A program made the translations under genes and the position numbers. Positions 3,005 to 55,304 of a DNA stretch of 64,000 nt are shown piece by piece (position 1 is the first letter of the stretch; the number at the start of each line of letters is the position of its first letter). Source of the DNA: Paramagnetospirillum marisnigri (lineage in GTDB: Bacteria; Pseudomonadota; Alphaproteobacteria; Rhodospirillales; Magnetospirillaceae); the NCBI RefSeq assembly GCF_001650715.1, contig NZ_LWQT01000066.1, positions 62,001 through 126,000 of the forward strand, written 5' to 3'. The notes beneath the pieces were generated by a model, which had not been told where the DNA came from, made no database searches, and saw nothing but the letters and a program-made list of their open reading frames with translations.

Positions 3005-3605
3005 CAGCCTCAGGCGCCGGCGCGAACTCCGTTCGCTTGGCTTCCCTCCGCTGCGCTCCGGCTCGCTCAACGCTCGCGCGCTCGGCTTTGCCTCGCTCGT
3101 CCTCGTCGGCGGCATAGACCGGCGGGATCACCACCAGCCTTGCGCCCGCCACATCCACCACCGGCACCTGCGCCTTGGTGAAGGGCACCATCAGGTTGCC
3201 CTTCGGCGCCAGCGCGATGTCCAGCACGTCCCCGGCGCCGAAATCATGCACCGCCGCGACGGTGCCCAGTCTTTCGCCGCCTTCATCCTCCACCGCCAGG
3301 CCGATCAGGTCGGAATAGAGGAACTCGTCCTCCGTCGACTTGGGCAGGCGCTCGCGGGCGACCCAGAAACGGGTGCCCTTCAGCGCCTCGGCGGCGTCGC
3401 GGTCGGAAATCCCCTCCAGCGTGGCGATGACCGAACCCTTGGCCTCGCCCGTCACCTTCAAGCGGAACTTCCGGCTTCCGGTCTCGTCCTCCACCGGGGA
3501 GTAGTAGCCGATATCCTTCGGCTCCTCGGTGAAGCTCTTGACCTTGACCGCGCCCCGGACCCCATGCACGCCAACGACGACGCCGACGCACACCCGGTCC
3601 GACAT
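2985..3605 (-). CDS. rimM: Ribosome maturation factor RimM
   Basis: RimM binds S19 and assists 30S head assembly. The protein starts [20 protein letters not shown] and has the N-terminal RimM fold, then a PRC-barrel containing [30 protein letters not shown] and [20 protein letters not shown]. The usual family length (about 170) is reached near [12 protein letters not shown]. The final roughly 35 residues are Arg/Glu/Ala-rich and are encoded by a family I repeat (about 3008-3095), so the tail is probably repeat-derived and unstructured. The gene overlaps trmD and follows rpsP by 6 bases. Confidence 0.95.
3008..3095 (+). repeat. Dispersed multi-hairpin repeat, family I, copy A
   Basis: This copy begins CCTCAGGCGCCGGC, then the hairpin GCGAAC-TCC-GTTCGC (3022-3036), then the connector TTGGCTT, a weakly paired segment, and GCTCAACGC. 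The first ~35 bases match copy C at 55223 almost exactly. The later stems are degenerate compared with copies B (23779-23866) and C. It lies inside the 3' end of rimM and encodes that protein's tail. Confidence 0.75.
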
Positions 3606-3611
3606 GGGATG

Positions 3612-3983
3612 TTACTCGGCGCTGGCGGTTTCGGCGGCCGCGGCGGCGGCACGATCGGCCTCGTCCTTGGCGCGCTGCTGGGCCTTGGCCTTGGGCTGCG
3701 GCTTCTTGGTCTGCTCGGGCTTGGCGGCCTTGGCCACCAGGCCCTTATCGGCGAAGAAGCGCACCAGGCGATCGGTGGGCTGGGCGCCGACGGACAGCCA
3801 ATGCTTTACCCGCTCCTCGTCCAGGGTCCAGCGCAGGCCGGATTCCACGGTGACCATGGGATTGTAGGTGCCGACCTTCTCGATGAAGCGGCCGTCGCGC
3901 GGGCTGCGGGCATCGGCCACCACGATCTTGTAGAAGGGGCGCTTCTTGGCGCCACCGCGGGAGAGACGAATCTTCAGAGCCAT
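3612..3983 (-). CDS. rpsP: 30S ribosomal protein S16
   Basis: S16 is an assembly-critical 30S protein. The sequence opens [20 protein letters not shown] and continues [20 protein letters not shown] and NPMV, the standard S16 core, with [15 protein letters not shown] near residue 70. At 123 residues it is about 35-40 longer than typical. The extension is a Lys/Gln/Ala-rich tail ([20 protein letters not shown] and an alanine run), a common feature of alphaproteobacterial S16. It is second in the ffh-rpsP-rimM-trmD-rplS operon. Confidence 0.97.
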
Positions 3984-4029
3984 TCTTCAGTCTTCCTCTT
4001 AGAGAAAATTTCCCAGGACGCCGGAACCC

Positions 4030-5394
<1,365 letters not shown>

Positions 5395-5497
5395 GCGAAT
5401 CCGTGACCCATAAGCAATGACACGCCGGTGCGCGTAAAGTCGCGGACCGACGGGCCTCCGTGGAGGCGGTGGTCTCCAGAAATCTGAAGAGGGTGGG

Positions 5498-5526
5498 GTT
5501 GTAGTCCGCTGAGCGGGGAGAGTCAA
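5498..5526 (-). promoter_or_regulatory. Sigma-70-type promoter for the ffh-rpsP-rimM-trmD-rplS operon
   Basis: Read on the minus strand there is TTGACT (5526-5521), a 17-base spacer, then TACAAC (5503-5498). This is a strong match to the housekeeping consensus with ideal spacing. It would start transcription near 5491, about 95 bases upstream of the ffh ATG. Confidence 0.65.
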
Positions 5527-5619
5527 CAATTTCCCCGCCGGTTTTGTTCAGAGGCCATTCATGTTGCACCGCATATGCTGGCCGCTCCAATCCAAGCCGC
5601 ACCTAGGGAGGATGCGCGC

Positions 5620-6912
5620 ATGACCCTTTCCATAGAACCCGCAGACCAGCCGTTTCCCATTCTTCGGCTGTTTCGCACCCGGTTGGTTCCGGGCCTCGCG
5701 CTTTCGGCCGTGCTCTTGCTTGGTGGCGGCTGGGTTTCCGTAACCTCCCTTGAAAAGAGGGTCTATCTGGAAACCACCCAGCGCCGGGTCGAAAACACGG
5801 TGCGACTGGTTGAGCGGGCCGAGCCCCAGACCTGGGAACGATTGCTCAGTGGGGAGAGCCCCGCCCTGGTCCTGGCCGATCCGGCCGGGGCTCGCGCCCG
5901 CTTCCTGCTGGAAGAAACGGCCAATGACGGTCATGTGCTGCAACTGAAAATCTTCAACGAGCGGGGAATCACTTTGTACGCCACAGACCCGGCAGACCTG
6001 GGCGTGAGGGAGGAAAACGCCCTGATGCGACAGGTGCTGCGGGACAAGAAGCCGCAGATTGAAACCACTCAGCGGGATAATCTTTCACTCTACGAGATCT
6101 ATGTTCCGATTAATACGAAAGAGCACACCATTGCCTTCGAGGTCTACGAGCCATCCAGCATACTGGACGAAGTCATCGTCGAGAGTTTCTCCCGCTTCGC
6201 GGTACTGCCCATCGTCATCCTGCTAGGCTTCGGGCTTTGGCTGCAGCGCGTTGTTACCAAGGCGCAGGCGGATATCGACGGACGTGTGGAGGTGCAACAG
6301 ACGCTGAGGCGGCAGTTGGAACGTTTCGTATCCCAAAGTGCCGGTCTTGCCGCCAGGCAATCTCCAGGCGGCCAGGTGCCGACAACCCGCGCCGGCATGA
6401 CTCTCTTTTATTCCGACGTTCGAGACTTCACCAGCCTGGCGGAATTTCATCCGCCCAAGGCCACGGTGGAGTTCCTCAACGAGTTGATGACCCGTCAGGT
6501 GGAGATCGTCACCACCCATGGTGGTGATGTCGACAAGATGATCGGCGATGCCCTTCTGGTGCGCTTCGAGGGCAGTGATCGTGAAGCCCGTGCCCTGGCC
6601 GCGGCCCAATCGATTCTGATCGACCTGGCGGCGCACCCCATGGCGCGAGCCATCGGAATCGGTATCTATGACGGTGAAGCCATCTTGGGGGCCATCGGCC
6701 CCAAGGAGCGCCAGGACTTCACCGTCATCGGCGACAGTGTCAACCTTGCCGCGCGTCTATGCTCCCTCGCGGAAGAAAACCAGCTTGTCATCGACGAACA
6801 AGCCCTGCGCCGCTCGGGATTGCCAGACGATGGCTTCTCTCCCGCCGAGGAAAACAAGGTCAAGGGCCGCAAGGGGCTGGTCAGCGTCCGGCGGTGGTCG
6901 CCATCCGTCTGA
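5620..6912 (+). CDS. Membrane-anchored class III adenylate cyclase with periplasmic sensor region
   Basis: The ATG at 5620 is preceded by AGGGAGG, giving 430 residues. There is an N-terminal transmembrane helix (about 24-42), an extracytoplasmic region of about 150 residues, a second helix (about 193-210), a short linker and a C-terminal class III nucleotide cyclase domain (about 255-390). Both metal aspartates are present, Asp266 in FYSDVRDFTS and Asp310 in KMIGDALLVRF. The transition-state residues lie in IGDSVNLAARL. Lys306 before MIGDALL fits ATP rather than GTP specificity. The expected product is cyclic AMP made in response to an unknown external signal. It converges on the MCP gene to its right. 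Confidence 0.88.
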   Translation: MTLSIEPADQPFPILRLFRTRLVPGLALSAVLLLGGGWVSVTSLEKRVYLETTQRRVENTVRLVERAEPQTWERLLSGESPALVLADPAGARARFLLEETANDGHVLQLKIFNERGITLYATDPADLGVREENALMRQVLRDKKPQIETTQRDNLSLYEIYVPINTKEHTIAFEVYEPSSILDEVIVESFSRFAVLPIVILLGFGLWLQRVVTKAQADIDGRVEVQQTLRRQLERFVSQSAGLAARQSPGGQVPTTRAGMTLFYSDVRDFTSLAEFHPPKATVEFLNELMTRQVEIVTTHGGDVDKMIGDALLVRFEGSDREARALAAAQSILIDLAAHPMARAIGIGIYDGEAILGAIGPKERQDFTVIGDSVNLAARLCSLAEENQLVIDEQALRRSGLPDDGFSPAEENKVKGRKGLVSVRRWSPSV

Positions 6913-6928
6913 ACCGTCAATCTCCGGC

Positions 6929-9889
6929 TCACAGCTTCAGGGCGTAGCGCAGGGCACCCCAATGGCGCGAGCCGACCATGATGGGGCAGTCGATTTCCTT
7001 CAGCAGCATGAACTGGCCACCGCCCATGTCGCGGACATAGGTTTGGGCCAGATAGGGCTGGGTATTGCGCGACGCCAGGATGCCGGTGCGGTCGTCGAAG
7101 ATGCGGCGGTTGCGCGAATGAGCCATGTTCCAGAGCTTGTCGCCGGGGCGCTGTGGCTCGGAATACTTCCGGTTATGAGTGGCGATATAGCCGTTGCGAT
7201 CCGAGGCGCAGCACAGCACCACCCGGGGATCCCGGGCCAGTTCGGTATCGATGATGTCGGGCAGCAACAGGTCGGTCAGGGCGGTGTGCTTGGCCAGCAG
7301 CTGCAACGGATCGGTATCGGGGATGGGGACATAGTCGTTGTCGAACAGGTCGCCCAGACTGATGCGGCCATCGGCCACGGCCTTTTCCAGGGCGGTGGCC
7401 ACCTTGGCGGCGGTCTGTTGCGCTGCCTGGATATAGGGAAGGTCGCGGGCCTTGGCCGCCTCGATGGCGTCGGTGATGGCCTGTTTCTGATCCTTGGACA
7501 CCTTGACGAACTGGCACTGGATGCCGAGTTGGCTGCCCAGGATGGCCTTGGACGGAATGGTGCCCACGCCGGGGAAGGTGATGGTGCCCATGGCGCCTTC
7601 CAGCTTGGGCGCGTTGCCCACCACCAGCAGGGCGCCCATCACCGAGATGTCGCCGGTCTGGCCCGAGAAGCGCTGGTCGCCGAATTCGGCCGAGAACTCC
7701 ACCGAGACCGGCACCCGTTCCACGGCGCGGCGGTTGCCGCCGTAGGAGGTGCGCAGGATGACATTGAGGCGGCGTTGAAGCGCGCCGATATCGTGGCTGA
7801 CCAGGGCGGACAGCTCGTTGACCTTGCGCGCCGTGGTGCCGGTCATCTCGGCCCCGTGCAGTACCGAGGCGGCGGTATGGGCCACTTCGCGGGTATGGTC
7901 GGCGGCCTGGACGGCGCTGGCCATGATTTCGGCGGTGGCGGCGCGCTGCTGCTCGGCGGATTCCGCCACCTGGCCCGCGATGGCATCAATGTCGCGGATG
8001 GTTTCGGCCACCGCTTCCACGGTGGTCACCGCCTCGCGGGTGGTGCGCTCGATGTCCTGGGCCTGGGCATTGACGCGGCCGATGGCGTCCTCGGTCTGGC
8101 CCGCCAGCCCCTTGACCTCGCTGGCCACTACGGCGAAGCCCTTGCCGGTCTCGCCGGCACGGGCGGCTTCGATGGTGGCGTTCAGCGCCAGCATGCGGGT
8201 CTGTCCGGCGATGGCCTGGATCAGCGAGGCCACATCGCCGATGCGGGCGGTGGCCTCGGTCAGGGTGCCGACGCTGGCGCTGGCGGCGTCGACCCTTTGG
8301 CGGGCCGCCTCGCTGTATTCCGAACTGTGCTGGATGCGCGCCGTGATCTCGCGCGACGAGGCTTCCAGTTCCTCGGTGGCTCCGGCCACGGTCTGGACAT
8401 TGCCGCTGGTGATCTCGATGGCGGTGGCCATGGATTGGGATTGGGCCTGCAATTCCTCGGCGGTGGCCAGCAGCTTGGCGGCACCTTCGCGCAGGCGGTC
8501 GGCCTGGGTGGAGATTTCGGCGACGGTGGTTTCCACCTCGCCCTCCAGCAGGACGGTCAGCTTCAGCATTTCCTTCTTGAGGTGGGCCTCGGCCTTGGCG
8601 GCATTTTCCTGCCGTTCCAGGGCGGCATAGCCCAGCTTGGCCTTCATGGCGCGCAACTGGGCATTGGGGCGCTGGAACTCGGCGACCGCCTCGATTTCGA
8701 TCTCATGGACGAAATCTCCGGCGGCGATGGCATTGAAATGCCGCTCCAGCCGCGCCAGCGGCTTGCGCAGGAAACGGACCAGCAGCACCGCCAGCAGCAC
8801 CGCCAGCAGGGTTCCCGACACCAGGAACGTGAAGCCCAGCCGCATGTGATGGCGGAAATCCGTCTTGGCGTCTTCGTAGAGTTCGCCCGCGACCCGGAGC
8901 TGGAGCAGAACCAGGCTCCGCGCCGCCTGATGCGCTTCTTCGAACAACTGGTGCAAGGTGTCGGCGGAATGCCCGCGCAGACCCTCGAGATCCTTGGCCT
9001 CGGCCAGGGATATGGCCACTTCCAGTCCATTGGACACATAGCTTTTGCGGGCCTGTTCGAACTCGTCGGCCAGTTCCTTCTCTTCCTCGGTGAGGGGATT
9101 GGACCGATAGGTCTGCCAGACCGCCCCGATATGGTCGCGATTGGCCCGGATGCGGGCGATCCGCTTTTGCACGCCCAGGCTGTTGGACGCCGCCAACTCG
9201 TCTTGCAGCAACTGGGCGTTCAGCAGGTTGTCGCGCATGCGGTCGACGACATCCGCCAACTGTCCGGCGGGAACCGTGCGGTGTTCGTAGACCGCGCGCA
9301 AGGCCTCGTTGGAATCGCCCATGCCATCCAGCACCGCGCCCATGCCCAGGATCATCACCATCACCAGCACCGCGATGATGACGGTCAGGCGGCCGGTGAT
9401 GCTGTTGGCCAGGCGGCCCAGCCGGGCGGCCAGGGTGGTGCCAAGCACCCTTCCTTCCGTGACCGTGATATTGCGGGCGGTGCCGTTGCGGATCTGCTCG
9501 TAGAGCTTTTCCGCCGCGTCGATCTGGGCGCGGCTCGGGGCCGAGCGGATGGAGATGAAGCCGGTGATCTCGCCATCGGTAATCTCGGGGGTGGCGTTGG
9601 CGCGCACCCAGTAATGATCACCGTTCTTGGCGCGGTTCTTGACGATACCTTCCCACGGCTTGCCCGATTTGATGGTCGCCCACAGATCGGCGAAGGCGGC
9701 GGGTGGCATATGGGGATGGCGGACCAGATTGTGGGGCGCGCCGATCAGCTCTTCCTCGGTATAGCCGCTGATGTCGATGAAGGCTTGGTTGACGAAGGTG
9801 ATACGGCCCTGGGGATCGGTCTTGGACACCAGGACTGTGCCCTCGGGCAACTCGATTTCGTGATTGGTAATCGGCTCGTTGACACGCAT
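6929..9889 (-). CDS. Large PAS-HAMP-methyl-accepting chemotaxis protein with PilZ and C-terminal sensor-like domain
   Basis: This is a chemoreceptor of about 986 residues. Order of parts: an Aer-type PAS domain (about 10-125: TDPQGRITFVNQAFIDISGY, NRAKNGDHYWVRANATP), a transmembrane helix (VIIAVLVMVMILGMGAVL), a roughly 140-residue ligand region, a second helix (FLVSGTLLAVLLAVLLVRFL), HAMP, and an MCP signalling domain ([20 protein letters not shown]). Next comes a PilZ domain with RAVER and DISVMG near residue 718, then about 185 residues ending MLLKEIDCPIMVGSRHWGAL. PAS suggests redox or oxygen sensing and PilZ suggests c-di-GMP input. I prefer the ATG at 9889; an in-frame ATG at 9922 lies just upstream. 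Confidence 0.9.
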   Translation of the reverse strand: MRVNEPITNHEIELPEGTVLVSKTDPQGRITFVNQAFIDISGYTEEELIGAPHNLVRHPHMPPAAFADLWATIKSGKPWEGIVKNRAKNGDHYWVRANATPEITDGEITGFISIRSAPSRAQIDAAEKLYEQIRNGTARNITVTEGRVLGTTLAARLGRLANSITGRLTVIIAVLVMVMILGMGAVLDGMGDSNEALRAVYEHRTVPAGQLADVVDRMRDNLLNAQLLQDELAASNSLGVQKRIARIRANRDHIGAVWQTYRSNPLTEEEKELADEFEQARKSYVSNGLEVAISLAEAKDLEGLRGHSADTLHQLFEEAHQAARSLVLLQLRVAGELYEDAKTDFRHHMRLGFTFLVSGTLLAVLLAVLLVRFLRKPLARLERHFNAIAAGDFVHEIEIEAVAEFQRPNAQLRAMKAKLGYAALERQENAAKAEAHLKKEMLKLTVLLEGEVETTVAEISTQADRLREGAAKLLATAEELQAQSQSMATAIEITSGNVQTVAGATEELEASSREITARIQHSSEYSEAARQRVDAASASVGTLTEATARIGDVASLIQAIAGQTRMLALNATIEAARAGETGKGFAVVASEVKGLAGQTEDAIGRVNAQAQDIERTTREAVTTVEAVAETIRDIDAIAGQVAESAEQQRAATAEIMASAVQAADHTREVAHTAASVLHGAEMTGTTARKVNELSALVSHDIGALQRRLNVILRTSYGGNRRAVERVPVSVEFSAEFGDQRFSGQTGDISVMGALLVVGNAPKLEGAMGTITFPGVGTIPSKAILGSQLGIQCQFVKVSKDQKQAITDAIEAAKARDLPYIQAAQQTAAKVATALEKAVADGRISLGDLFDNDYVPIPDTDPLQLLAKHTALTDLLLPDIIDTELARDPRVVLCCASDRNGYIATHNRKYSEPQRPGDKLWNMAHSRNRRIFDDRTGILASRNTQPYLAQTYVRDMGGGQFMLLKEIDCPIMVGSRHWGALRYALKL

Positions 9890-10140
9890 CTGGACACCCG
9901 GCTCCCAAACCTGAAACCCCATACATCCGCTGTATGCATATAAACGAATGGAGTGTCCAGCCCGGCTTTAGGTTGGAACAGAGACCGTGGCGAAATGCCG
10001 GGCACTTGCCTGCTTTTTAGGCGATTCGCCTCAGTTATTCGGCCCGTCGCCGCCGTCTCCGGAATAGGTACACCTCTTGCATCAATGGCGGGAGCAGTAA
10101 GGCTCAAACCGCGCCAAGGCGGAAGAATGGGATTCGGGAG

Positions 10141-10560
10141 ATGGCGGTCATCGTATTTTATGAAAAGCCAGGATGTGCCAACAACACCCGCCAGAAACAG
10201 GCGTTGATCCGGTCGGGGCACGACGTGGTGGCGCTGGATATCCGGGTTCAGGCCTGGACACCCGACACGTTGCGCCCATTCTTTATCGGCCGTCCGGTGG
10301 CGGACTGGTTCAACCGTGCCGCCCCCCGGGTGAAGTCGGGGGCGGTGGTGCCGGAACTGATGCAGGCCGACGAGGCCCTGGCGGCCATGTGCGTCGATCC
10401 CCTGCTGATTCGCCGCCCGCTGATGGAATCCGATGGCAGGCGCATGGTGGGATTCGACGAGGCGGCGGTGAATGCCTGGTTGGGGCTGGTGCCCGAAGGG
10501 CCGCCGCTGACCGAGGTCTGCCCCCGCAGCGACGGCGCCTGTCCTCCGCCGAAGGTGTGA
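10141..10560 (+). CDS. ArsC/Spx-family thioredoxin-fold protein, nitrogenase-associated type
   Basis: The 139-residue protein begins MAVIVFYEKPGCANNTRQKQ. The N-terminal beta strand, the single Cys in KPGCANN and the C-terminal DPLLIRRPLMESDGRRMVGF block are typical of the ArsC/Spx superfamily. The wording FYEKPGCxNNTRQK fits the subgroup found beside nitrogenase genes (often labelled nitrogenase-associated protein). No nif gene is in the window, so that role is an inference. The gene stands alone on the plus strand, with the ORF ending directly against the convergent enoyl-CoA hydratase. It may be a redox or glutathione-linked reductase; its substrate is unknown. Confidence 0.82.
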   Translation: MAVIVFYEKPGCANNTRQKQALIRSGHDVVALDIRVQAWTPDTLRPFFIGRPVADWFNRAAPRVKSGAVVPELMQADEALAAMCVDPLLIRRPLMESDGRRMVGFDEAAVNAWLGLVPEGPPLTEVCPRSDGACPPPKV

Positions 10561-11325: not shown

Positions 11326-11353
11326 GGACGCCTCCGGTTCGGATTTTGAGCGA

Positions 11354-11381
11354 AGTGTAGCTCAGCATCGGCGGCTGGCAA
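11354..11381 (-). promoter_or_regulatory. Putative promoter for the enoyl-CoA hydratase gene
   Basis: On the minus strand, TTGCCA (11381-11376), a 16-base spacer and TACACT (11359-11354) lie just upstream of the gene start at 11325. It is a reasonable but not perfect match to the housekeeping consensus. Confidence 0.4.
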
Positions 11382-11433
11382 GACGGGCCTGGGCGGGATA
11401 TGGTTGAGACCGCCTCTTACCTTGGATCAGGCC

Positions 11434-13073: not shown

Positions 13074-13118
13074 GCCCCTCCGGCGTCGGTGTCGGGGCTG
13101 GCATCGCGGGCCTCGCGC

Positions 13119-13147
13119 TTGACGAGTCCTTAATTCCCCCCAAGATA
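13119..13147 (+). promoter_or_regulatory. Putative promoter of the Hsp20 gene
   Basis: CTTGACG (TTGACG at 13119-13124) is followed 17 bases later by AAGATA and by an overlapping GATATAC. The TTGACG could serve as a housekeeping -35, and CTTG with the downstream C-rich/AT segment also resembles a heat-shock sigma promoter. I cannot decide between the two. Confidence 0.35.
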
Positions 13148-13159
13148 TACTACAGGAAG

Positions 13160-13210: not shown

Positions 13211-13220
13211 ACGAGGATCC

Positions 13221-13730: not shown

Positions 13731-13731
13731 C

Positions 13732-13984: not shown

Positions 13985-13993
13985 GGGGAGGGG

Positions 13994-15268: not shown

Positions 15269-15299
15269 GACACCCTTGTCCTCTTCGGCCGGGGGCCGG

Positions 15300-22308: not shown

Positions 22309-23718
22309 ATGTCCGCCCCCTCGCTCCGCCGGACGGTCGCCGCCTCGACCACCATGACCCTGATCGCCCTGCTGGCCACCGGCCTGGTGGCTTATGCCGC
22401 CATCGGCTACGGCCTGATGATGGACGCCTCGGTGACCGCCGCCCTAGCCGATGCCGCCAAGGGTGGCGATGGCTGGCGCGCCTCGCTGGAAGCCGCCGTC
22501 GCGTCCCATCGCGGTTTTGGCTGGACCATGGTGGTGCTGGCGGTGGTGGCGGGCGGCGCCTTGTTTTTCCTGGCTCTGCGCTCCAACGCCCAAATCCGCG
22601 CCATCATCGCCCTGGTGGAACGGGGCGAAGCGGTGGCGGCCCAGGCCGCCCAGGGCGACTTCAACGCCCGGGTCCTGCGCATCGGGCGCACCGACGAGCT
22701 GGGTCGCATGATGACCGGCTTCAACCGGGTGCTGGACCTGACCGAGGAATTCGCCAAGGACGCGGGCGCCGCCATGAAGATGGCGGGGCAAAAGCAGTAT
22801 TTCCGCTATATCCCGCTGCAGGGTCTGCGCGGCGACTATCTCGGCTATGCCGAGGGCATCAACAAGGTGCTGGCGGACATGGACGCCCGCGACCAGGAGA
22901 CCCGCAGATTCGAGCAGTCGGTTCAGGCCATGGTCGCCGACGTCTCCAAGGCCACCAATGCCATCGGCCAGACCGCCGGAATCATGGCGGCGCGCTCGGA
23001 AAGCGCGGGCGGCAGCTCGCTCACCGTGGGCGAGGCGGCCGAGGTCACCACCCAGCGGGCGGCGTCGGTGTCCGAGTCCATCCACCAGTTGGCCGGGGCC
23101 ATCAACGAGATCGCCCAGCAGGTCACCCGTTCGGCCACCGTGGCGCAGAACGCCGTCGCCGATATCGGGACGACGGTGGAACGCATGAACGGGCTGGCCG
23201 ATTCCGTCAGCCAGATCGGCGAGGTGGTCAGCCTGATCAACGACATCGCGTCCCAGACCAACCTGCTGGCGCTCAACGCCACCATCGAGGCCGCGCGGGC
23301 GGGCGAGGCCGGCAAGGGATTCGCCGTGGTGGCCAACGAGGTCAAGACCCTGGCCAGCCAGACCGCCCGGGCCACCGAGGACATTACCAATCAGGTGAAC
23401 GCGGTGCAGGAAGCGGCACGTTCGGCGGCGTCGGGTATCGGCGATGTGGTGGAGACCATCCGCAGCATCGACCGCATTTCGGCCACCATCGCGGGCGCGG
23501 TGCAGGAACAGGAGGCGGTGACCCGCGAGATTTCCGAACATATCGACGAGGTGGCGGCACAGGCCGCCGATGTCTCGGAGAACGTCGCCCACCTGTCCCA
23601 GGCCTCGGCCCAGGCCTGCGGCGGCACCGTCCGGGTGATCTGGAGCGCCCGCATGCTGGGCAAGGTGGTTGAATCGCTGACCAGTCAGGTCAATGAGTAT
23701 GTCAGCAAGGTGAAGTAG
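22309..23718 (+). CDS. Methyl-accepting chemotaxis protein
   Basis: This 469-residue receptor has two transmembrane helices close together (about 15-40 and 72-92, the second reading [16 protein letters not shown]). Only a ~35-residue loop lies between them, so there is no real periplasmic ligand domain. A HAMP-like segment follows ([20 protein letters not shown]) and then the MCP signalling hairpin with [20 protein letters not shown] and [20 protein letters not shown]. Lack of an outside sensor fits an energy-taxis role with the PAS protein encoded just upstream. Confidence 0.93.
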
Positions 23719-23754: not shown

Positions 23755-23870
23755 GCCCGGCGCTTGAGGGACAAGAACGGAGCGAAGCGACTGGGCCGTT
23801 GAGGCCCCGCGCCCGCGTGGGCGCGAAAGCCAAGCATTCCGGAGGAATGCGCCCGGCGCTTGAGGGACAA
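23755..23870 (-). repeat. Dispersed multi-hairpin repeat, family I, copy B plus a partial copy
   Basis: Read on the minus strand, the full copy (23866-23779) gives CCTCAAGCGCCGGGC, hairpin GCATTCC-TCC-GGAATGC, connector TTGGCTTTC, hairpin GCGCCC-ACGC-GGGCGC, hairpin GGGCC-TCAAC-GGCCC and the tail CAGTCGCTTCGCTCC. Copy C has the same loops and connectors with different but still paired stems. A 20-base piece GCCCGGCGCTTGAGGGACAA occurs twice on the plus strand, at 23755-23774 and 23851-23870, so the array is partly duplicated. It lies between the MCP gene and the GmhA-like gene. Confidence 0.8.
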
Positions 23871-23877: not shown

Positions 23878-24498
23878 TCAGAACTTCCTTGCCGCCACCA
23901 GATCGCGGGGCATGCGGTTCATGCGGATGAACTGGGCCAGCACATGCATCAGCGACTGGTGCACATCCTCGATGATGCCGTAATTGTCGGCGCTGACATG
24001 CAGATTGGCATCGGCCAGCTTGGCGGTGCGCCCACCGGTGAAACCGGTCAGCGCGATGGTGCCGACGCCGTTGGCCTTGGCCCATTGGATGGCGCGGACC
24101 ACGTTTTCCGAATCCCCCGACGAACTGATGGTGATCAGCACGTCGCCCGGCCGGGCGAAGGTCCTCAGCTGGTAGGCGAAGACCTCGGCATAGTCCAGGT
24201 CATTGGCGATGGCGGTGATCATCTCAATGGTGGCCGACAGGGAATGGACCCGGGGCTTCAGGCTGGTATCGGTCTGGATGCCCTTCACATGGTCGCAGAC
24301 CAGATGATTGGAGATGGCCGCCGAACCGCCATTGCCGCAGACATAGACATGGGCATCGGCTTCCATGGCGCCCGACAGCAGGATTTCCGCCGCCGCCAGG
24401 GCGCTTTTCGGCACCGAGGCCAGCGCCTGGGCGATTTTCTCGCTATAGGCCTCGTAGAAGGCGGCGATGCTGGAATGGGGCTTTTCGGGGAAGTACAT
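23878..24498 (-). CDS. SIS-domain phosphosugar isomerase, GmhA-like
   Basis: The 206-residue protein (ATG at 24498, MYFPEKPHSSIAAFYEAYSE) is one SIS domain with the GmhA-type signatures VYVCGNGGSAAISNHLVCDH near residue 55, ITISSSGDSENVVRAIQWAK near 125 and GIIEDVHQSLMHVLAQFI near the end. GmhA converts sedoheptulose-7-phosphate to glycero-manno-heptose-7-phosphate. A GmhB-like phosphatase lies at 34055, supporting a heptose role, but another ketose phosphate is possible. An upstream in-frame extension to 24558 has no ribosome site. Confidence 0.82.
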   Translation of the reverse strand: MYFPEKPHSSIAAFYEAYSEKIAQALASVPKSALAAAEILLSGAMEADAHVYVCGNGGSAAISNHLVCDHVKGIQTDTSLKPRVHSLSATIEMITAIANDLDYAEVFAYQLRTFARPGDVLITISSSGDSENVVRAIQWAKANGVGTIALTGFTGGRTAKLADANLHVSADNYGIIEDVHQSLMHVLAQFIRMNRMPRDLVAARKF

Positions 24499-24557
24499 GG
24501 CGGTCCTCGGTTTCGGCAACGGGCAATGAGGCGGAAACGCCCACCTAATCCTCGTCA

Positions 24558-24606
24558 CCCCCGGACCTGATCCGGGGGTCCATGGATGCCCGGATCAAGT
24601 CCGGGC
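24558..24606. repeat. Twin palindromes between the wecB and GmhA-like genes
   Basis: Two perfect hairpins follow each other: CCCCCGGA (24558-24565) with TCCGGGGG (24571-24578), and GCCCGGA (24588-24594) with TCCGGGC (24600-24606). The form resembles the CCCGGA..TCCGGG intergenic palindromes common in alphaproteobacteria. It could end wecB transcription. Confidence 0.6.
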
Positions 24607-34053: not shown

Positions 34054-34054
34054 C

Positions 34055-44490: not shown

Positions 44491-44491
44491 C

Positions 44492-47297: not shown

Positions 47298-47300
47298 CTC

Positions 47301-48968: not shown

Positions 48969-50686
48969 GCCGCCTCCACCCGGATCAGGCCGGACCAGGG
49001 CAGCGGCGCGGCGGCGATGGTGATCTCGATGCGGCTGGCGGGCACGCCCTCGCCATAGGCGGTCCACAGGGTGGTCGGGCTAACCGTGATCTCGGCATCC
49101 GGGGCGGTGATGGTGAAGCGGCGCCCGCCGGGGGCATGAAGATGCAGCCCGCCCGCCACCGCCTCGACCCGGCAGGTGGTATGCAGGCGGCGGATCAGGA
49201 GATGGGGGCCGCTGCCCGCCACCGTGTCGGTGATGTCCAGCCTGCGGCCCTCGAATCGCCAGCGCCGGGTGACGGCACCGACGCCTTTGAGGCGGCGAAA
49301 ACCGTTGATGTTCAGGTCGATGCCGTCGGGATCGCGGACCAGCCGGGGCGGCGCGCCGCCGAGCGTGCGGCGGAAGGACTCGGCGTAATAGGGCTTGTTG
49401 GCGGCGTAGGGATCGAAGCCGTCCACCGACAGGCCGTTATGGGCCTGGGCCGACACCATCTCGTCGGCCTCGCCCGCCACGGCATAGCTGCCGCGCCCCA
49501 GGTCGACGAACACCGCTTCCTTCTCGAAATGCAGTTCGAAGCCGCCGCAATCCTGGTGGCCGTGGCCGGGCATCTGGCTCCACCCCTCGGGATCGGCGTG
49601 CCACAGTCCCATCCAGTCGCCGAAGGAGGCCTTCAGCCAGCCGTCCTCGGCCAGGGGCTCGCTGGGCGCCACCTCGTCCAGCAGGGCGGCCAGGGGGGCG
49701 CGCTGGTCGGGGGGCAGCACGTCCAGCCAGCCCGAGCGGCGATCGCCGCCGGGAAGCAGGCCGAACAGATGCTCGGGCGGGCAGTCGGGCGAGATGTCGC
49801 CCACCAGGGGGAAGCGACCGGGCAGGCAGAGATGGGGCAGCACCGCCACGGCGCGGCGCAGCGCTTTCTCGAAGACCTCGGCCTCGGGGCGGTGATGCTC
49901 GCGCGCCGCCAGCCAGACGCTGGACAGCGACCGGGTCAGCAGCAGGTGGTAATGGCTGGAACCCTCGCGCAGCAGCCCCGACACCCGGAAGATGCGGCCC
50001 AGTTCCGAAGTCAGGATGGCGGCGCCGGCCGCGGTGGCGCGGGGCAGGCCGAGGGCTAGGCCCAGCAGGTAAAGGCCGCGGCCGTTGTTGAACAGGTGGT
50101 TCGAGGTGTGGTGCTCGCCGAAATATTCCAGCCGCGCCGCCATGGCGGGGGCATGGGCCGCCAGCACGGCCAGGGTATCCTCGGCCGGACCGGGCAGGCC
50201 GTGGCGGCGGATGAAGGTGATCAGGTTGATGGCGCGTTCGGCGGCGGTATAGGGATGCCAGGCCCAGGAGGAATCCGGGGTGCCGAAGCGAGCCCTCCAG
50301 GCGGCCCAGATGGTCGCCACCCAGCGGGCGTCGTCGCCCGGCTTCATCATGGGCACCCAGGCGAAGCGGTGCAGACCCAGCTGGGTCTCGGGATCGTCCA
50401 GCGGGGCGGCCACCAGTGTCGCCTCGCCGCCGGGCTCCACCTCCAGCACCCGACCGGGCAGCCGCAGGGTCAGGCGGCCCCGGGGGCTACCTTCGGGCAA
50501 GGCGGGGAACACCGCCTGGGGCGTCTCCGGCTCCAGCCCGGCCCAGCCCGGCCCCAGGCAAGGCGGGCGATGGGGGGTGAAGGCGGGCTCGCCCGGGGTC
50601 AGCCGCAGGGCGCGCAGGATCAGCCAGCGCCGCAGCACGGGGTCGTCGGAGAGTTGCCGCAGTTTGCGCTTCAGGCCGTCCAGCAT
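48965..50686 (-). CDS. Heparinase II/III family polysaccharide lyase-like protein
   Basis: The 573-residue protein has an alpha/alpha-toroid N-terminal half (WHPYTAAERAINLITFIRRH, YFGEHHTSNHLFNNGRGLYL) and a C-terminal beta-sandwich. Family residues appear in MPGHGHQDCGGFELHFEKEA and VSAQAHNGLSVDG, the usual His-rich lyase centre. No signal peptide is obvious. In synthesis loci such proteins trim or edit acidic polysaccharide. It is the first gene of the operon with MBOAT and SGNH. Confidence 0.85.
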   Translation of the reverse strand: MLDGLKRKLRQLSDDPVLRRWLILRALRLTPGEPAFTPHRPPCLGPGWAGLEPETPQAVFPALPEGSPRGRLTLRLPGRVLEVEPGGEATLVAAPLDDPETQLGLHRFAWVPMMKPGDDARWVATIWAAWRARFGTPDSSWAWHPYTAAERAINLITFIRRHGLPGPAEDTLAVLAAHAPAMAARLEYFGEHHTSNHLFNNGRGLYLLGLALGLPRATAAGAAILTSELGRIFRVSGLLREGSSHYHLLLTRSLSSVWLAAREHHRPEAEVFEKALRRAVAVLPHLCLPGRFPLVGDISPDCPPEHLFGLLPGGDRRSGWLDVLPPDQRAPLAALLDEVAPSEPLAEDGWLKASFGDWMGLWHADPEGWSQMPGHGHQDCGGFELHFEKEAVFVDLGRGSYAVAGEADEMVSAQAHNGLSVDGFDPYAANKPYYAESFRRTLGGAPPRLVRDPDGIDLNINGFRRLKGVGAVTRRWRFEGRRLDITDTVAGSGPHLLIRRLHTTCRVEAVAGGLHLHAPGGRRFTITAPDAEITVSPTTLWTAYGEGVPASRIEITIAAAPLPWSGLIRVEAA

Positions 50687-50736
50687 GAAAATGCTTGTAG
50701 CGGAGTGAAAGGCCGGAAGCTATAGAGGATCGCACC

Positions 50737-51660
50737 ATGACCGCTCCCGCCAAATCCGACATCCAAGCCTTCTGGAAGGCGCTGTACAACTCGCTCTACG
50801 AGGATGTGGACGCGCATCTGACCCGTGACGCCCTGTTCAAGTCGCTGGACGACCTGGAAGACATGTTCCGCCTGCGCCGTCACATGGCGGTGGTGGAAAT
50901 GCCGCTGGCCGAGCTGGCGGGCAAGCGGGTGCTGGAAGTGGGGCCGGGTGCCGGCGGCCATTCCGCCCTGTTCGCCAAGCATGGCGCCATCATGACCAGC
51001 CTGGACATCACCCCGGCCAGGGCGCGGGCCACCGAGGCCAAATTCCGCCTGATGGGCGAGGCGGCGGCGGACTGCCACGCGGTCAATGGCGATTCGGAAA
51101 ACCTGCCCTTCGCCGATGCCAGTTTCGATATCGTCTATTCCAACGGGGTGCTGCACCACACCCTGGACACCGAAAGGGCCATCGCCGAGGTGTTCAGGGT
51201 GCTCAAGCCCGGCGGACGGGCGGTGATCATGCTCTATTGCAAGAGCTCGTGGCACTACTGGATCAACATGTTCCTGCCCATCGGCCTGCTGATGGGCAAG
51301 GCGTTCCGCGACCCCAACTGGCTGGGCAAGGCCACCGAATGGGGCGGCAAGGACCGCCAGACCGTGGCCAATCCCATCACCCGTTGCTATACCGGCGCCG
51401 AAATCGGGCGGCTGTTCGCCGCCTTCAAGGACGTGACCTGGCGCAAGGGCGAGTTCTACTGGTATCTGGTGCCCAAGCTGGGGCGGCTGTACCGCAAATA
51501 CCAGATCAAGCGCTACGGCACCCATCCCGGCGGCGTGCTGGTCTATGGCGAGCCCTGGCCGATCCAGTCGCCGCTGGAGCTGAAGCTGGGCGAGATCATG
51601 GGCTTTTCCTGGTTCATAGCGGCGAGGAAGCCGAAGAACACCCCCCTCCCCCCGCCATAG
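50737..51660 (+). CDS. Class I SAM-dependent methyltransferase
   Basis: The 307-residue protein has SAM motif I VLEVGPGAGGHSALFAKHGA near residue 68, motif II DSENLPFADASFDIVYSNGV near 122 and motif III FRVLKPGGRAVIMLYCKSSW, a UbiE/type-11 layout. A C-terminal part (YKKY-like basic LYRKYQIKRYGTHPGG) may bind the acceptor. The last residues (NTPLPPP) are encoded by the family II palindromic repeat that begins inside the gene. It probably methylates a sugar or lipid of this locus. Confidence 0.85.
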   Translation: MTAPAKSDIQAFWKALYNSLYEDVDAHLTRDALFKSLDDLEDMFRLRRHMAVVEMPLAELAGKRVLEVGPGAGGHSALFAKHGAIMTSLDITPARARATEAKFRLMGEAAADCHAVNGDSENLPFADASFDIVYSNGVLHHTLDTERAIAEVFRVLKPGGRAVIMLYCKSSWHYWINMFLPIGLLMGKAFRDPNWLGKATEWGGKDRQTVANPITRCYTGAEIGRLFAAFKDVTWRKGEFYWYLVPKLGRLYRKYQIKRYGTHPGGVLVYGEPWPIQSPLELKLGEIMGFSWFIAARKPKNTPLPPP

Positions 51661-51725
51661 GTAGGGGGAGGCCGGGAGGGGGGCCCCCACCCCGACCCTC
51701 CCCCGGCAAAGCCGAGGGAGGGGGA
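51640..51725. repeat. Family II GC-rich palindromic repeat
   Basis: GGGGGAGGCCGGGAGGGGGG, CCCCCACCCCGACC and CTCCCCCGGCAAAGCCGAGG follow each other between two convergent genes. The inner CCCCCGGC...GCCGAGGGAGGGGG hairpin matches the copies at 1655-1785. The left edge supplies the last codons of the methyltransferase gene. Confidence 0.65.
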
Positions 51726-51732
51726 TATGTCC

Positions 51733-52758
51733 TCACGGCACCACGAACTGCCAGCCGAACCAGCGCCAGCGCCCTTCCAGGGTGGCGACGGTGCAGTTGA
51801 GGCGCACCCGGCCCTGGGGCAGCGGCTTGCTCATGCGCACCTCCACCCGTGGCCCCAGGCGTTCCACCCGCACCTGTCCCTGATGCGAGGCGAAGCAGGC
51901 CAGCCCATCGATACCGGGGATCTCCTCGGCCAGGGTGAAGCCGAAGGCCGGGGGATTGGCCCTGACCAGGGGATCGGCGGGGGTGATATCGGTGACCGGC
52001 AGCGGCAGCGCGCGTAGGGCTAGGCGGATGCGATCGGGCTCGCCATAGGCGGCGGTGGCGGCGAAACGGGGCAGATAGGTGGGATCGGCCTTGGCCCAGG
52101 CGGCGCCGGAATGCTGGCCGAAGGCGACTTTGTAGCCCGCCTGACGCACCAGCCGCATGGAGTCGGCGCTGGCCTCGCCCCAGGGCCAGACGAAAATCTC
52201 GGGCACCCGGCCCAATTCCTGCAGGAAGCGCTCCCGTGCCTTGGCCAGGTCGGCGGCGACGGCGTCGGGGCTGGCCTTGGCCATGCGCAGCCGGGCGGCG
52301 CCTTGGCTGGCGATGGCGACGCCCGCCTGGGCCAGATCGCGCAACTGGTTCCAGCTCAGCCCATCGGGGCCGCCGCGATCCACCTCGTCGGTGGCCACCG
52401 CCAGGGTTACCGGCACGCCCGCCTTGCGCAGCAGCGGCCAGGCGCGGCGAACGAAGGTGGCGCTGTCCTCGTCCACGGTCAGGGAGACTGCCTTGTCGGG
52501 CAGGGCACGGCCCTGCGCCATGGCCTCGACCACTTCGGCCAGGGGTAGCACCGTGTGACCACCGGACTTGAACTCGGCCAGATGGGCGGCCAGTTGCTCG
52601 GTAGTGGTGTTGAGCGCCGGAATGCGGTCGTCGTCAAAGCGGTGATAGAGCAGCACCACGGCGGACTCGGCAGCCAGGGCCGATGGGGCCCCGCCCGCCA
52701 GCAGCCCCACCAGCAGCCCCATCGGCACCAAGGCCCAGGCGCGACATCGACCCGCCAT
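51733..52758 (-). CDS. Polysaccharide-deacetylase-fold protein lacking the zinc histidines
   Basis: The 341-residue protein has a signal peptide (LVPMGLLVGLLAGGAPSALA) and the NodB/PgaB fold order: VVLLYHRFDDDRIPALNTTT, motif 1 SLTVDEDSATFVRRAWPLLR, and the late EIFVWPWGEASADSMRLVRQ. In motif 1 the usual TFDDG reads TVDED. In motif 2 the usual SHTxxH reads IASQGAARLRM, so both zinc histidines are missing. Metal-dependent deacetylation is therefore unlikely. It may bind polysaccharide or catalyse something else. It is the last gene of the operon that starts at 58345. Confidence 0.75.
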   Translation of the reverse strand: MAGRCRAWALVPMGLLVGLLAGGAPSALAAESAVVLLYHRFDDDRIPALNTTTEQLAAHLAEFKSGGHTVLPLAEVVEAMAQGRALPDKAVSLTVDEDSATFVRRAWPLLRKAGVPVTLAVATDEVDRGGPDGLSWNQLRDLAQAGVAIASQGAARLRMAKASPDAVAADLAKARERFLQELGRVPEIFVWPWGEASADSMRLVRQAGYKVAFGQHSGAAWAKADPTYLPRFAATAAYGEPDRIRLALRALPLPVTDITPADPLVRANPPAFGFTLAEEIPGIDGLACFASHQGQVRVERLGPRVEVRMSKPLPQGRVRLNCTVATLEGRWRWFGWQFVVP

Positions 52759-52766
52759 GGCTCTCG

Positions 52767-54272
52767 CTAGGCCTCGTCCACCAGCTTGCGCTTGAGCCGC
52801 GTCGTCGACATGGCTTCCACATGGCGCCGCGTCTCCCAGCCGAAGCGCTGCGCCACCATGCCGAGATAGCGCTCGTTCTCGAAATATTCGTGGAAGGCAT
52901 CATCGCGGAACTTCAGCACCTGGGCCGCCGTGCAATGCTCCGTTGGCAGCGGCTGGCAGTCGTAGGAATGCTGCGAGAAGCCCGACCAGCTTTGCGGCAG
53001 TGCCCAGCCCTGGGCCACCGCCTGGTGGTAGAGCTGCGAGCCGGGATAGGCCATGGCGGAATAGAAATTGGCGAATTCGCAGTTGAGTTCCTTGGACAGG
53101 TCCAGGGTCTCGCGCATGGTCTCCAGCGTATCGTCGGGCAGGCCGAAGATGTAGTTGCCGATGACGCAGATGCCCGCTTTCTGGATGTCGCGGACGATGC
53201 CGATGATGTCTTCCTGCTTCAGGGCCTTGTCGGCGCCGTCGCGCACATGCTTTGAGCCCGATTCGATGCCCAGCGCCAGCCAGCGGATGCCCGCCTTGCG
53301 CAGCTTGGCCAGCATGGCGGGCTTCACCGTGTCGACCCGGGCATAGGCCCAGAAGTTCAGCTCGTCGGAATAACCCAGCTCGATCAATCCGTCGCAGATG
53401 GCGTTCACGTGCCGGTCGTTGAGCACGAACATCTCGTCGATGATCTTGAAGGTCTTGACGCCATGGGTGCGGTAAAGCCGGTCCACCTCGGCCACCACCT
53501 GAACGGGGGAGCGCATGCGGTAGCGGTTGGCGTCGAACGGGGCGTTGATGCAGCAGAAGCTGCACTTATAGGGGCAGCCCAACGAGGTATAGATGCTGGC
53601 ATAGGGCTTGCGCGATCCCAGATCGCCAAAGCATTGCCAGTTATGGGCGCGGTACTTGTCCATGGGCAACAGGTGCCAGACATTGCCGTGCAGGTCGGCG
53701 TCCAGGTCATGGGTCAGGGCGGCGGGCTTGTTGACGCGGATCACGTCCTCGCCGTCGCGCCAGACCAGACCGGCCACGTCGGCGGGCTCTTCCGCCGCGC
53801 CCGATTGCAGCCAGTCGAGCAGTTGCACCACGGTGGCGGGACCTTCGCCCTTGCAGGCGAAATCCACCTTCTCCTCGGCCAGGGTCTTTTCCGGCAGCGC
53901 CGAGACATGGCCGCCGACGATCAGGATCGGCAGTTCCGGGGCGGTATCCTTCAGGGCCTCGCAGGCATGGGCGGCGCCCACCATCTGCTGGGTCGAGGCC
54001 GAGGGCTGGTGTCCGAACACCACCATCACCACCAGGGTGGGGTTCAGGGCCTTGACCCGGGCGGCGACCTCGTCCGGGCCGATTTCCTCGGCCTCGGAAT
54101 CGATGATGGTGACGGTCTTGCCCCGGTCCAGGGCGTAACCGGCGATCAGGCGGCACCACAGCGGCGGCTCGATGGCGGTCAGCTCGCCACCCAGCTCCTG
54201 GTACACCGCCTCGCGACCGCCGGGATTGACCAGGACCAGATCGACGCGCTCGGACTCCATGGGCTCAGACAT
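52767..54272 (-). CDS. B12-binding domain radical SAM protein
   Basis: The 501-residue protein has an N-terminal cobalamin-binding-like domain (about 8-150: VDLVLVNPGGREAVYQELGG, LVVMVVFGHQPSASTQQMVG, ELPILIVGGHVSALPEKTLA) and a radical SAM core with the cluster Cys in LGCPYKCSFCCINAPFDANR near residue 233. KTFKIIDEMFVLNDRHVNAI, LALGIESGSKHVRDGADKAL and GNYIFGLPDDTLETMRETLD complete the barrel. It resembles class B methylases of sugars and natural products, but the reaction is unassigned. It overlaps the epimerase gene upstream by 8 bases. Confidence 0.88.
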   Translation of the reverse strand: MSEPMESERVDLVLVNPGGREAVYQELGGELTAIEPPLWCRLIAGYALDRGKTVTIIDSEAEEIGPDEVAARVKALNPTLVVMVVFGHQPSASTQQMVGAAHACEALKDTAPELPILIVGGHVSALPEKTLAEEKVDFACKGEGPATVVQLLDWLQSGAAEEPADVAGLVWRDGEDVIRVNKPAALTHDLDADLHGNVWHLLPMDKYRAHNWQCFGDLGSRKPYASIYTSLGCPYKCSFCCINAPFDANRYRMRSPVQVVAEVDRLYRTHGVKTFKIIDEMFVLNDRHVNAICDGLIELGYSDELNFWAYARVDTVKPAMLAKLRKAGIRWLALGIESGSKHVRDGADKALKQEDIIGIVRDIQKAGICVIGNYIFGLPDDTLETMRETLDLSKELNCEFANFYSAMAYPGSQLYHQAVAQGWALPQSWSGFSQHSYDCQPLPTEHCTAAQVLKFRDDAFHEYFENERYLGMVAQRFGWETRRHVEAMSTTRLKRKLVDEA

Positions 54273-55203
54273 TGCCGTAGATCGAATTCTTGATCATGGT
54301 GAAGCCCTTCATCAGATCGGCGATGCCGAGATCCAGCGAATGGGCGGGCTTGAAGCCGGTCTTCTCGATCTTCTCGTTGGAGACGATGTAGTCGCGCTTG
54401 TCGGGGTCCTCGCCAATGGGCGCTTCCACGAAGACGAATTTGGGAATGTGCTTCTGGATCACCTGGCACAGTTCCCACTTGGACAGATTGGCATCCGACA
54501 GACCCACATTGTAGGGCTGGTTCTTCATGGACTCGAAATTGTTCAAGCCGTGCATGAAGGCGCGGGTGACGTCGCGCACATGGATGTAGTTGCGCTTGAA
54601 ATGGGGCTCGAACAGCACCACGGCGCGGTCGGTGACGGCGCGGTAGACGAAGTCGTTGACCAGCAGGTCGATACGCATGCGCGGCGCCATGCCGAACACG
54701 GTGGCGAGGCGGAAGCTGATGGCGTTGCCGCGTTCCAGCAGAGCCTGCTCGACCTCGACCTTATGGACGCCGTAGAGCGAGATGGGGCGCAGCGGAGTTT
54801 CCTCGGTGCAGAACTTGCCCTTCTCGCCGACGCCATAGCCGGAATTGGTGATGGGCATCAAGACGCGCTGGTTGGGCGACAGCATCTTGAACAGCATCTT
54901 CTGGGCGTCGAGATTCGTGGTGGTGGCGCCGATGGGGTCCATGGCGCAGAGCGGCGCGCCGACCAGGGCGGCCAGCGGGATCACCACGTCCTTGTCCTTG
55001 ATCAGTCCGGCCATCAGCTTCTCGTCGCGGCAGTCGCCCTTGACCACCGAGAAGTTGGGATCGGCGCAGACGCTGCCCAGCGAGTGCTGCTTGAACATGA
55101 AATTGTCCAGCACCGTGACCTTGTGGCCCGCCGCCAGCAGTTCGGGAACCATGATGGAGCCGAGATAGCCCGCGCCGCCGGTTACCAGGATGTTGTAGGT
55201 CAT
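54265..55203 (-). CDS. NAD-dependent sugar epimerase/dehydratase family protein
   Basis: The 312-residue extended SDR has NILVTGGAGYLGSIMVPELL at the N-terminus, a downstream VVIPLAALVGAPLCAMDPIG, an active-site SGYG and Tyr-x3-Lys in PISLYGVHKVEVEQALLERG. Substrate is unknown. It is the gene after the ColD-like dehydratase, separated by a family I repeat, and could reduce or epimerise the keto-sugar made there. Confidence 0.88.
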   Translation of the reverse strand: MTYNILVTGGAGYLGSIMVPELLAAGHKVTVLDNFMFKQHSLGSVCADPNFSVVKGDCRDEKLMAGLIKDKDVVIPLAALVGAPLCAMDPIGATTTNLDAQKMLFKMLSPNQRVLMPITNSGYGVGEKGKFCTEETPLRPISLYGVHKVEVEQALLERGNAISFRLATVFGMAPRMRIDLLVNDFVYRAVTDRAVVLFEPHFKRNYIHVRDVTRAFMHGLNNFESMKNQPYNVGLSDANLSKWELCQVIQKHIPKFVFVEAPIGEDPDKRDYIVSNEKIEKTGFKPAHSLDLGIADLMKGFTMIKNSIYGNV

Positions 55204-55222
55204 TGAGTCTTCCTTTCTTTTG

Positions 55223-55304
55223 CCTCAAGCGCCGGCGCGAACTCCGTTCGCTTGGCTTTCGCCGCATGAGCGGCGGGCGCTCAACGCGCCAGTCGCTTCG
55301 CTCC
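55223..55304 (+). repeat. Dispersed multi-hairpin repeat, family I, copy C
   Basis: CCTCAAGCGCCGGC, hairpin GCGAAC-TCC-GTTCGC (55237-55251), connector TTGGCTTTC, hairpin GCCGC-ATGA-GCGGC, hairpin GGCGC-TCAAC-GCGCC and the tail CAGTCGCTTCGCTCC. Loops 1 and 3 and the tail are identical to copy B at 23779-23866, whose stems differ but still pair. It is intergenic, between the dehydratase and epimerase genes. Confidence 0.8.

What the first reader, a model, noticed from the sequence alone, without database searches (positions are those of the whole stretch)
3008..55304. Dispersed multi-hairpin repeat whose stems covary while loops and tails stay fixed
Copies at 23779-23866 (minus) and 55223-55304 (plus) share the order CCTCAAGCGCCGG, hairpin 1, TTGGCTTTC, hairpin 2, hairpin 3 with loop TCAAC, and CAGTCGCTTCGCTCC. 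Stem 1 is GCGAAC/GTTCGC in one and GCATTCC/GGAATGC in the other. Stem 2 is GCCGC/GCGGC versus GCGCCC/GGGCGC. Stem 3 is GGCGC/GCGCC versus GGGCC/GGCCC. A third, partly decayed copy is at 3008-3095. Compensating changes at three stems suggest selection for a folded RNA or a structure-recognised mobile element. I know of no named family with this form, though that was not searched.
Basis: partly seen in the sequence, partly recalled or inferred. Interest (0 to 1): 0.75.

Follow-up and report, generated by a model that had tools for sequence, protein, structure and literature searches.

The report
Palindromic mobile repeats in Alphaproteobacteria
The repeat is a small, probably jumping piece of DNA built from hairpins that has spread through many Alphaproteobacteria, and copies that landed in overlapping gene junctions keep a tiny open reading frame between the two genes.

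Summary
The three window copies belong to a dispersed family: 48 matches (E<1e-3) in the own genome, and 11-150 in each of 17 genomes of the genus, own included. The phylum sample matched only inside the window's class.

Stems covary almost perfectly, but without the G-U tolerance expected of RNA: G-T 17 and A-C 26 of 2985 pairs. Recent copies decay at broadly comparable rates in stems and loops.

Complete copies (53-172 bp) have TACC...GGTA inverted ends and TNA target duplications (24 of 27 modal-length copies). The window copies are a shorter core form. Copy 3 lies in-frame in the end of rimM and is absent in 8 of 8 relatives aligned.

I read it as a MITE-like, non-autonomous mobile element whose hairpins stay paired because paired copies spread, or are exchanged as modules. 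No transposase was found; Y1/RAYT is absent from the window's genome.

Unexpected: core copies at start codons with ATGA on both sides carry an in-frame mini-ORF in 17 of 17 cases (11 distinct junctions plus one doubtful), against 12 of 41 controls.

The parts
23779..23866 (-). copy A, core form, subtype I (read downwards on the minus strand)
   Evidence: (G000:C66:85807-85865)
23853..23865 (-). copy A conserved box CCTCAAGCGCCGG
23834..23850 (-). copy A hairpin 1, GCATTCC-TCC-GGAATGC
   Evidence: by inspection
23826..23833 (-). copy A conserved linker TTGGCTTT
23808..23825 (-). copy A hairpin 2, CGCGCCC-ACGC-GGGCGCG
   Evidence: by inspection
23793..23807 (-). copy A hairpin 3, GGGCC-TCAAC-GGCCC
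   Evidence: by inspection
23779..23792 (-). copy A subtype I tail AGTCGCTTCGCTCC
23757..23769 (-). second, solitary box as a direct repeat 96 bp from the first; relative G303 has a box but no body after the same gene
55223..55304 (+). copy B, core form, subtype I; box 55223-55235, hairpin 1 55237-55251, linker 55252-55259, hairpin 2 55260-55275, hairpin 3 55276-55290, tail 55291-55304
3008..3095 (+). copy C, core form, subtype III; box 3008-3020, hairpin 1 3022-3036; the exact ends of the insert are not resolved
2985..3605 (-). rimM; copy C lies in-frame near its C-terminal end (relatives aligned lack the insert)
2258..3115 (-). trmD as the longest ORF, overlapping rimM through copy C; true start not determined
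23878..24558 (-). SIS-domain gene whose TGA stop abuts the left end of copy A
22309..23718 (+). chemotaxis receptor-like gene, convergent with the SIS gene across copy A
54265..55203 (-). NAD-dependent epimerase gene; copy B lies just upstream of its start
55358..56530 (-). DegT/DnrJ/EryC1 aminotransferase gene upstream of copy B in the same direction

Best explanation
A family of small non-autonomous mobile DNA elements (MITE-like) built from modular palindromes. SHOWN: the complete form has up to five hairpins, ends TACC...GGTA and a 3-bp TNA target duplication, and occurs as many near-identical copies at unrelated sites in several genomes. SHOWN: a core form (box, hairpin 1, TTGGCTTTCGC, hairpin 2, hairpin 3, variable tail), which includes the three window copies, is dispersed, often at gene ends, and some copies are absent at the same site in relatives. 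SHOWN: stems are nearly perfect Watson-Crick palindromes whose sequence differs between copies, with no sign of RNA-strand selection. INFERRED: a transposase supplied in trans recognises the ends and tolerates or needs the palindromes, so only well-paired copies spread; after insertion copies decay nearly neutrally or exchange whole hairpins with other copies through the fixed box and linker. The transposase is unidentified.
For: Target duplications match in 24 of 27 modal-length complete copies of three families with both flanks readable: 10/12, 9/10, 5/5, all TAA, TTA or TCA. Five complete copies recognised by eye in the window's own genome also show equal TNA flanks (chosen because recognisable). 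In a strict pattern scan of the loci then held, 21 of 205 contexts had TACC-like and GGTA-like ends with equal TNA; the others are core form, altered or cut. G043 has 171+166 terminal-repeat hits against a control of 18 (up to 3 mismatches), sizes 53-172 bp, the shortest with altered ends. Near-identical copies sit at unrelated sites in G228 and G011. Copy C is absent in 8 of 8 aligned relatives. ATGA junctions without the element exist in L121 and L070. Mismatches: 17 G-T against 26 A-C of 2985 pairs; in recent families 11 G-T against 13 A-C; substitution rates stem/loop 0.017/0.018, 0.018/0.037 and 0.0115/0.004. Patchy distribution: 30 of 289 genomes of the class and 15 of 398 of the phylum sample, all 15 inside the class; both counts include the own genome.
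Against: No autonomous partner was found: none of the ten DDE_Tnp_1 loci of G043, G000 and G228 has TACC/GGTA ends with equal TNA. The core form, to which all three window copies belong, shows only a weak target-duplication signal: 10 of 51 against 5.0 expected. At one occupied start codon (greA) the duplicated stretch is about 9 bp, not 3. The internal hairpins and their fixed loops are not explained by a need for ends alone. Some gene boundaries are occupied in several species, which could mean a function. G011 stems change at half the loop rate, which could be weak constraint.
Confidence: 0.7

Rival explanations
1. A structured RNA (small RNA, mRNA-end stabiliser or leader) whose stems are kept paired by selection on the transcript of each resident copy.
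For: Strong covariation with fixed loops and linkers. Many copies lie at gene ends, mostly between co-directional or convergent genes; 1 of 31 intergenic own copies lies between divergent genes (home-made gene finder, own loci of 2.5 kb or more only). Some boundaries are occupied in several species.
Against: G-T is not preferred over A-C. The set of 20 has no single-sided change. Stems of recent copies decay at rates broadly like loops, with G011 at half the loop rate. No Rfam match at threshold. Both orientations relative to neighbouring genes occur.
Confidence: 0.1
2. A REP-type element moved as single-stranded hairpins by a Y1 (RAYT/IS200-like) transposase.
For: High-copy palindromes near gene ends; tandem copies in some relatives. 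One diverged Y1 transposase gene each in G043, G228 and G292.
Against: No Y1 transposase in the window's own genome, nor in G303, G300, G011 (77% complete) or G175, which carry many copies. Three-bp target duplications are not produced by Y1 transposition (established knowledge, recalled). Complete elements are 53-172 bp, not 20-40 bp.
Confidence: 0.08
3. The covariation is produced mainly by recombination: whole hairpins are swapped between copies, or a stem is rewritten by copying its opposite arm, so no selection for pairing is needed.
For: At 12 gene boundaries occupied in two or more genomes with hairpin 1 readable on both sides, 10 hold a different hairpin 1 in at least one comparison, six of them with a different tail class (34 rows, 17 readable on both sides). 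The same hairpin-1 sequence occurs with several tail types. Two solo palindromes, L246 and L283, look like a hairpin copied outward.
Against: Mixing is incomplete: 2.06 tail types per shared hairpin 1 against 2.46 when shuffled, reached by 0.2% of shuffles. Recent copies carry uncorrected one-sided mismatches (20 in G011, 13 and 7 in the two G043 size classes, against 4, 2 and 0 double changes). The origin of 92 distinct hairpin-1 arms still has to be explained. Independent insertions at favoured sites could give the same picture.
Confidence: 0.3

Closest known systems
MITEs of bacteria (for example QMITE2 of Coxiella; review PMC10969869, passages seen)
   Same: Short, no transposase gene, inverted ends, target duplication, stable hairpins; in-frame fusions with genes are known for some.
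   Different: The review calls MITEs typically AT-rich; this family is GC-rich, has a multi-hairpin interior with fixed loops and covarying stems, and also exists as a core form without the inverted ends. No parent IS found.
Rickettsia palindromic elements (RPE)
   Same: Alphaproteobacterial palindromic elements of about 150 bp, many in-frame inside protein genes (PMC10969869 passages); copy C is in-frame in rimM.
   Different: No sequence relation was tested. Here most own copies examined lie between genes (31 of 37) and are GC-rich.
REP/BIME with RAYT, and the CGTC-tagged REPs of Alphaproteobacteria (PMC3733652: abstract, passages, section 6 seen)
   Same: High-copy palindromes near gene ends with units that vary in stem and loop; CGTC-REPs also lack a known transposase.
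   Different: REPs are 20-40 bp; CGTC-REPs have 8-9 bp stems beginning with AT pairs and mostly a CCA tail. This family has several hairpins, other fixed motifs and target duplications.
Repetitive hairpin elements of sponge mitochondria (PMC2800124, search listing only); fungal double-hairpin elements (recalled)
   Same: Dispersed hairpin elements inferred to be mobile.
   Different: Organelle genomes; no sequence relation tested.

Membership tests
MITE | terminal inverted repeats | tested here: met
   TACC...GGTA ends in complete copies; not in the window's core-form copies
MITE | target site duplication of fixed length | tested here: met
   24 of 27 modal-length complete copies, TNA; weak for core form, 10 of 51 against 5.0 expected
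MITE | short and without a transposase gene | tested here: met
   53-172 bp
MITE | autonomous element with the same ends in the genome | tested here: inconclusive
   ten PF01609 loci of G043, G000 and G228 lack such ends; other DDE families not searched; only the first 100 of 337 end hits in G043 were listed
REP/RAYT (Y1) | Y1 transposase encoded in the genome | tested here: not met
   0 in own genome; present in 3 of 7 other carriers
REP/RAYT (Y1) | single 20-40 bp palindrome | tested here: not met
   multi-hairpin element; size definition from PMC3733652 abstract
CGTC-tagged REP | 8-9 bp stem starting with AT pairs, 4-5 nt loop, CCA tail | tested here: not met
   description from PMC3733652 section 6 held against by eye; a recalled rhizobial motif is absent from 478 loci
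Rickettsia palindromic element | in-frame insertion in protein genes | tested here: met
   copy C in rimM; not the usual case here
Rickettsia palindromic element | sequence relation to RPE families | not tested
   no RPE sequences were compared
Structured RNA family | match to an Rfam model | tested here: not met
Structured RNA family | wobble pairs tolerated on the transcribed strand | tested here: not met
   17 G-T against 26 A-C of 2985 pairs; no known RNA was run as a positive control

The most novel reading that the evidence does not exclude
The core form is a translation-transparent mobile element. It enters the 4-nt ATGA overlap where one operon gene stops and the next starts, duplicates ATGA, and becomes a 34-47-codon relay gene: ribosomes leaving the upstream gene start on it, read through its hairpins, and stop on a second ATGA where the downstream gene starts, with a GAGGG-like motif carried by the element just before it. 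Frame-keeping is selected in spite of free variation in length and sequence.
Probability: 0.4. Interest if true: 0.75.

Novelty: new variant of a known kind. Interest (0 to 1): 0.6.

Why it matters
Covariation is widely taken as a sign of a functional RNA. This family shows textbook covariation without the wobble signature, so it is a warning and a test case for covariation-based RNA discovery. It also gives a natural set of insertions into gene overlaps with which translational coupling can be tested, and points to an unassigned transposition system that has recently multiplied elements in several Alphaproteobacteria.

Tried and rejected
Rfam: nothing at threshold over a copy in the window or in six loci. 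The permissive scan gave three weak matches; one, Twister-sister at 24.6 bits against a cut-off of 34 (E 0.22), overlaps the copy in L118 on the opposite strand. Y1 transposase as the general mover: rejected. DDE_Tnp_1 loci as the parent: ends do not fit. Plasmid search with one complete element: no match. Eight viral contigs carry the core; not followed.

Literature: a search for the element's own motifs listed five papers, unrelated by title. Searches for Magnetospirillum or alphaproteobacterial palindromes, intergenic mosaic elements and MITEs listed no title that describes this family; most papers in those lists were not opened, and most subscription papers are not held.

I expected the relay reading frame to be specially open in all copies. 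It is not: 116 of 149 contexts are open in that reverse frame and 113 of 149 in another, so the frame effect is confined to copies at ATGA. A first version of that control had an indexing error and was repeated. The notebook entry '9 of 13' slots was recounted as 10 of 12. The pair listing was cut, so one search replaced it. The gene finder is home-made and rough. The 149 contexts include 23 without an exact linker (box-only, altered or chance matches) and two contexts of the window genome counted twice.
Full report
OBSERVATION. Searching the window's own genome with copy B gives further copies. A covariance model (R1) built from 58 core sequences finds 48 matches at E<1e-3 in the 4.62-Mb genome (some of the 58 come from this genome). 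The order of parts is: a T-rich stretch, box CCTCARNCGCCGG, hairpin 1 (mostly loop NTCC or TCC), TTGGCTTTCGC, hairpin 2 (loop often A-Y-N-N), hairpin 3 and a variable tail.

DISTRIBUTION. The names that can be placed are Alphaproteobacteria (Magnetospirillum and relatives, Roseomonas and other Acetobacteraceae, Pleomorphomonas, Methylobacterium, Mesorhizobium, Sphingomonadales), except one Grimontia hit that does not look like the element; some are unplaced 'Proteobacteria'. Contig lengths of handle G292 equal those of Paramagnetospirillum kuznetsovii LBB-42, so the window is probably from a related species; this is inference.

THE COMPLETE ELEMENT. In G011, G228 and G043 many similar or near-identical copies at unrelated sites show the borders. 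In G043 the element runs from TACCAAATTGCAGTGATCG (first hairpin) through the core to a last hairpin with CGATGAGTCAAACTCATCG, ending CTTGGTA. Sizes seen are 53, 81, 127, 145 and 172 bp, the shorter ones with altered ends. G043 has 171+166 hits to the ends against 18 for the control pattern. Equal 3-bp flanks (TAA, TTA, TCA) are found in 24 of 27 modal-length copies with both flanks readable. In the window's own genome five complete copies are recognisable with equal TNA flanks (L179, L180, L181, L184, L191, read by eye; two have altered left ends). The three window copies lack the end hairpins (core form).

WHY NOT RNA. In 252 distinct copies, 1556 hairpin-1 pairs are 95.2% and 1429 hairpin-2 pairs 96.7% Watson-Crick; over both, G-T is 17 and A-C 26 (14 and 18 copies whose hairpin could not be called were left out). 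In the ungapped set of 20 there are 54 double changes and no single-sided one (hairpin 2 but not hairpin 1 was pre-selected to pair). In recent families, substitutions from the family consensus per site are: G043 (10 copies) stem 0.017, loop 0.018; G011 (15 copies) stem 0.018, loop 0.037; G043 long form (5 copies) stem 0.0115, loop 0.004. One-sided mismatches are 11 G-T and 13 A-C. G011 taken alone would allow some constraint on stems. An RNA under selection should accept G-T on its own strand and reject A-C; this is not seen. I ran no known RNA as a positive control. The pairing is therefore more likely maintained at DNA level when copies multiply, or by exchange.

EXCHANGE OF MODULES. At 12 gene boundaries occupied in two or more genomes with hairpin 1 readable on both sides, 10 carry a different hairpin 1 in at least one comparison, six of them with a different tail class. 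Copy B and its counterpart in G303 differ in all three stems. Against free mixing, hairpin-1 sequences are still associated with tail type. Independent insertion at favoured sites is not excluded.

MOBILITY OF THE WINDOW COPIES. Copy C lies in-frame in the C-terminal end of rimM; eight of eight relatives aligned have rimM without it. Copy A: five relatives were aligned at the end of the SIS gene; G292, G304, G302 and G300 have no copy there and G303 has only a box, but the right flank could not be aligned. In the window itself a second box lies 96 bp from the first; in the genus set 19 of 149 contexts have a second box downstream on the same strand and none on the opposite strand. Copy B: of seven relatives aligned on the left, G303 has a copy, G292, G304, G300 and G293 do not, and G297 and G298 are not informative because the right flank differs.

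GENE JUNCTIONS. A start codon on the reverse strand (TCAT) sits exactly 14 nt before the box in 8 of 49 own and 14 of 100 relatives' contexts; the mean at other positions is 0.4 and 0.7, the maximum 3. Of these 22, 17 have a second TCAT beyond the right end, against 41 of 127 others; five do not. In all 17 the stretch from the outer ATG to the TGA that overlaps the next ATG is a single open frame of 34-47 codons; among the 41 controls 12 are in frame and open (Fisher P 5e-7). L446 is doubtful because its ATG lies inside a hairpin; without it and with one orthologous group collapsed it is 14 of 14 (P 2e-6); collapsing all counterpart genes leaves 11 junctions (P 2e-5). In 15 of 17 the TGA of the first ATGA closes an upstream frame of at least 75 codons; for some short loci other frames are open too. 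The downstream genes look real, for example MSKAFTKE... (GreA by recall). Junctions without the element exist: L121 (...GTGAAGGCATGAGCAAAGC...) for the greA junction and L070 for that of L425. At greA the own genome and G292 carry different subtypes at the same place and share a duplicated ATGAGCAAG, longer than TNA. I read this as selection for uninterrupted translation across the insert; that ribosomes use it is not shown.

WHAT MOVES IT. Unknown. Y1 transposase is absent from the own genome and from four of seven other carriers. Ten DDE_Tnp_1 loci lack the ends. TNA duplications are known for the IS1031 group of IS5 (recalled, not tested).

LITERATURE. PMC10969869: passages seen. PMC3733652: abstract, passages and section 6 seen. 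PMC12306157: passages seen. Other papers: search listings only. None of the passages read describes this family.

Noticed in passing
window 63474-63699 (-): Cobalamin riboswitch, 117.3 bits.
   Followed up: no
L246 near 1501-1542; L283 near 1501: Solo palindromes made of one end hairpin only, TACC...GGTA, flanked by TAA on the left and TTA on the right; they look like a hairpin copied outward.
   Followed up: no
L322, L328, L384 (G290, G291); coordinates of G300 and G293: Tandem core copies with a period of roughly 80-105 bp.
   Followed up: partly
L479, L480, L481: Single diverged Y1 transposase genes in G228, G043 and G292; the two tested match the REP-associated model below its cut-off.
   Followed up: partly
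L471-L478: Eight viral contigs of IMG/VR carry the core pattern.
   Followed up: no
L110 4067-4109 (-) and 6365-6407 (+): Two copies in inverted orientation about 2.3 kb apart with similar upstream sequence of about 30 nt; a near-identical upstream sequence precedes a copy with a different hairpin 1 in L118.
   Followed up: partly
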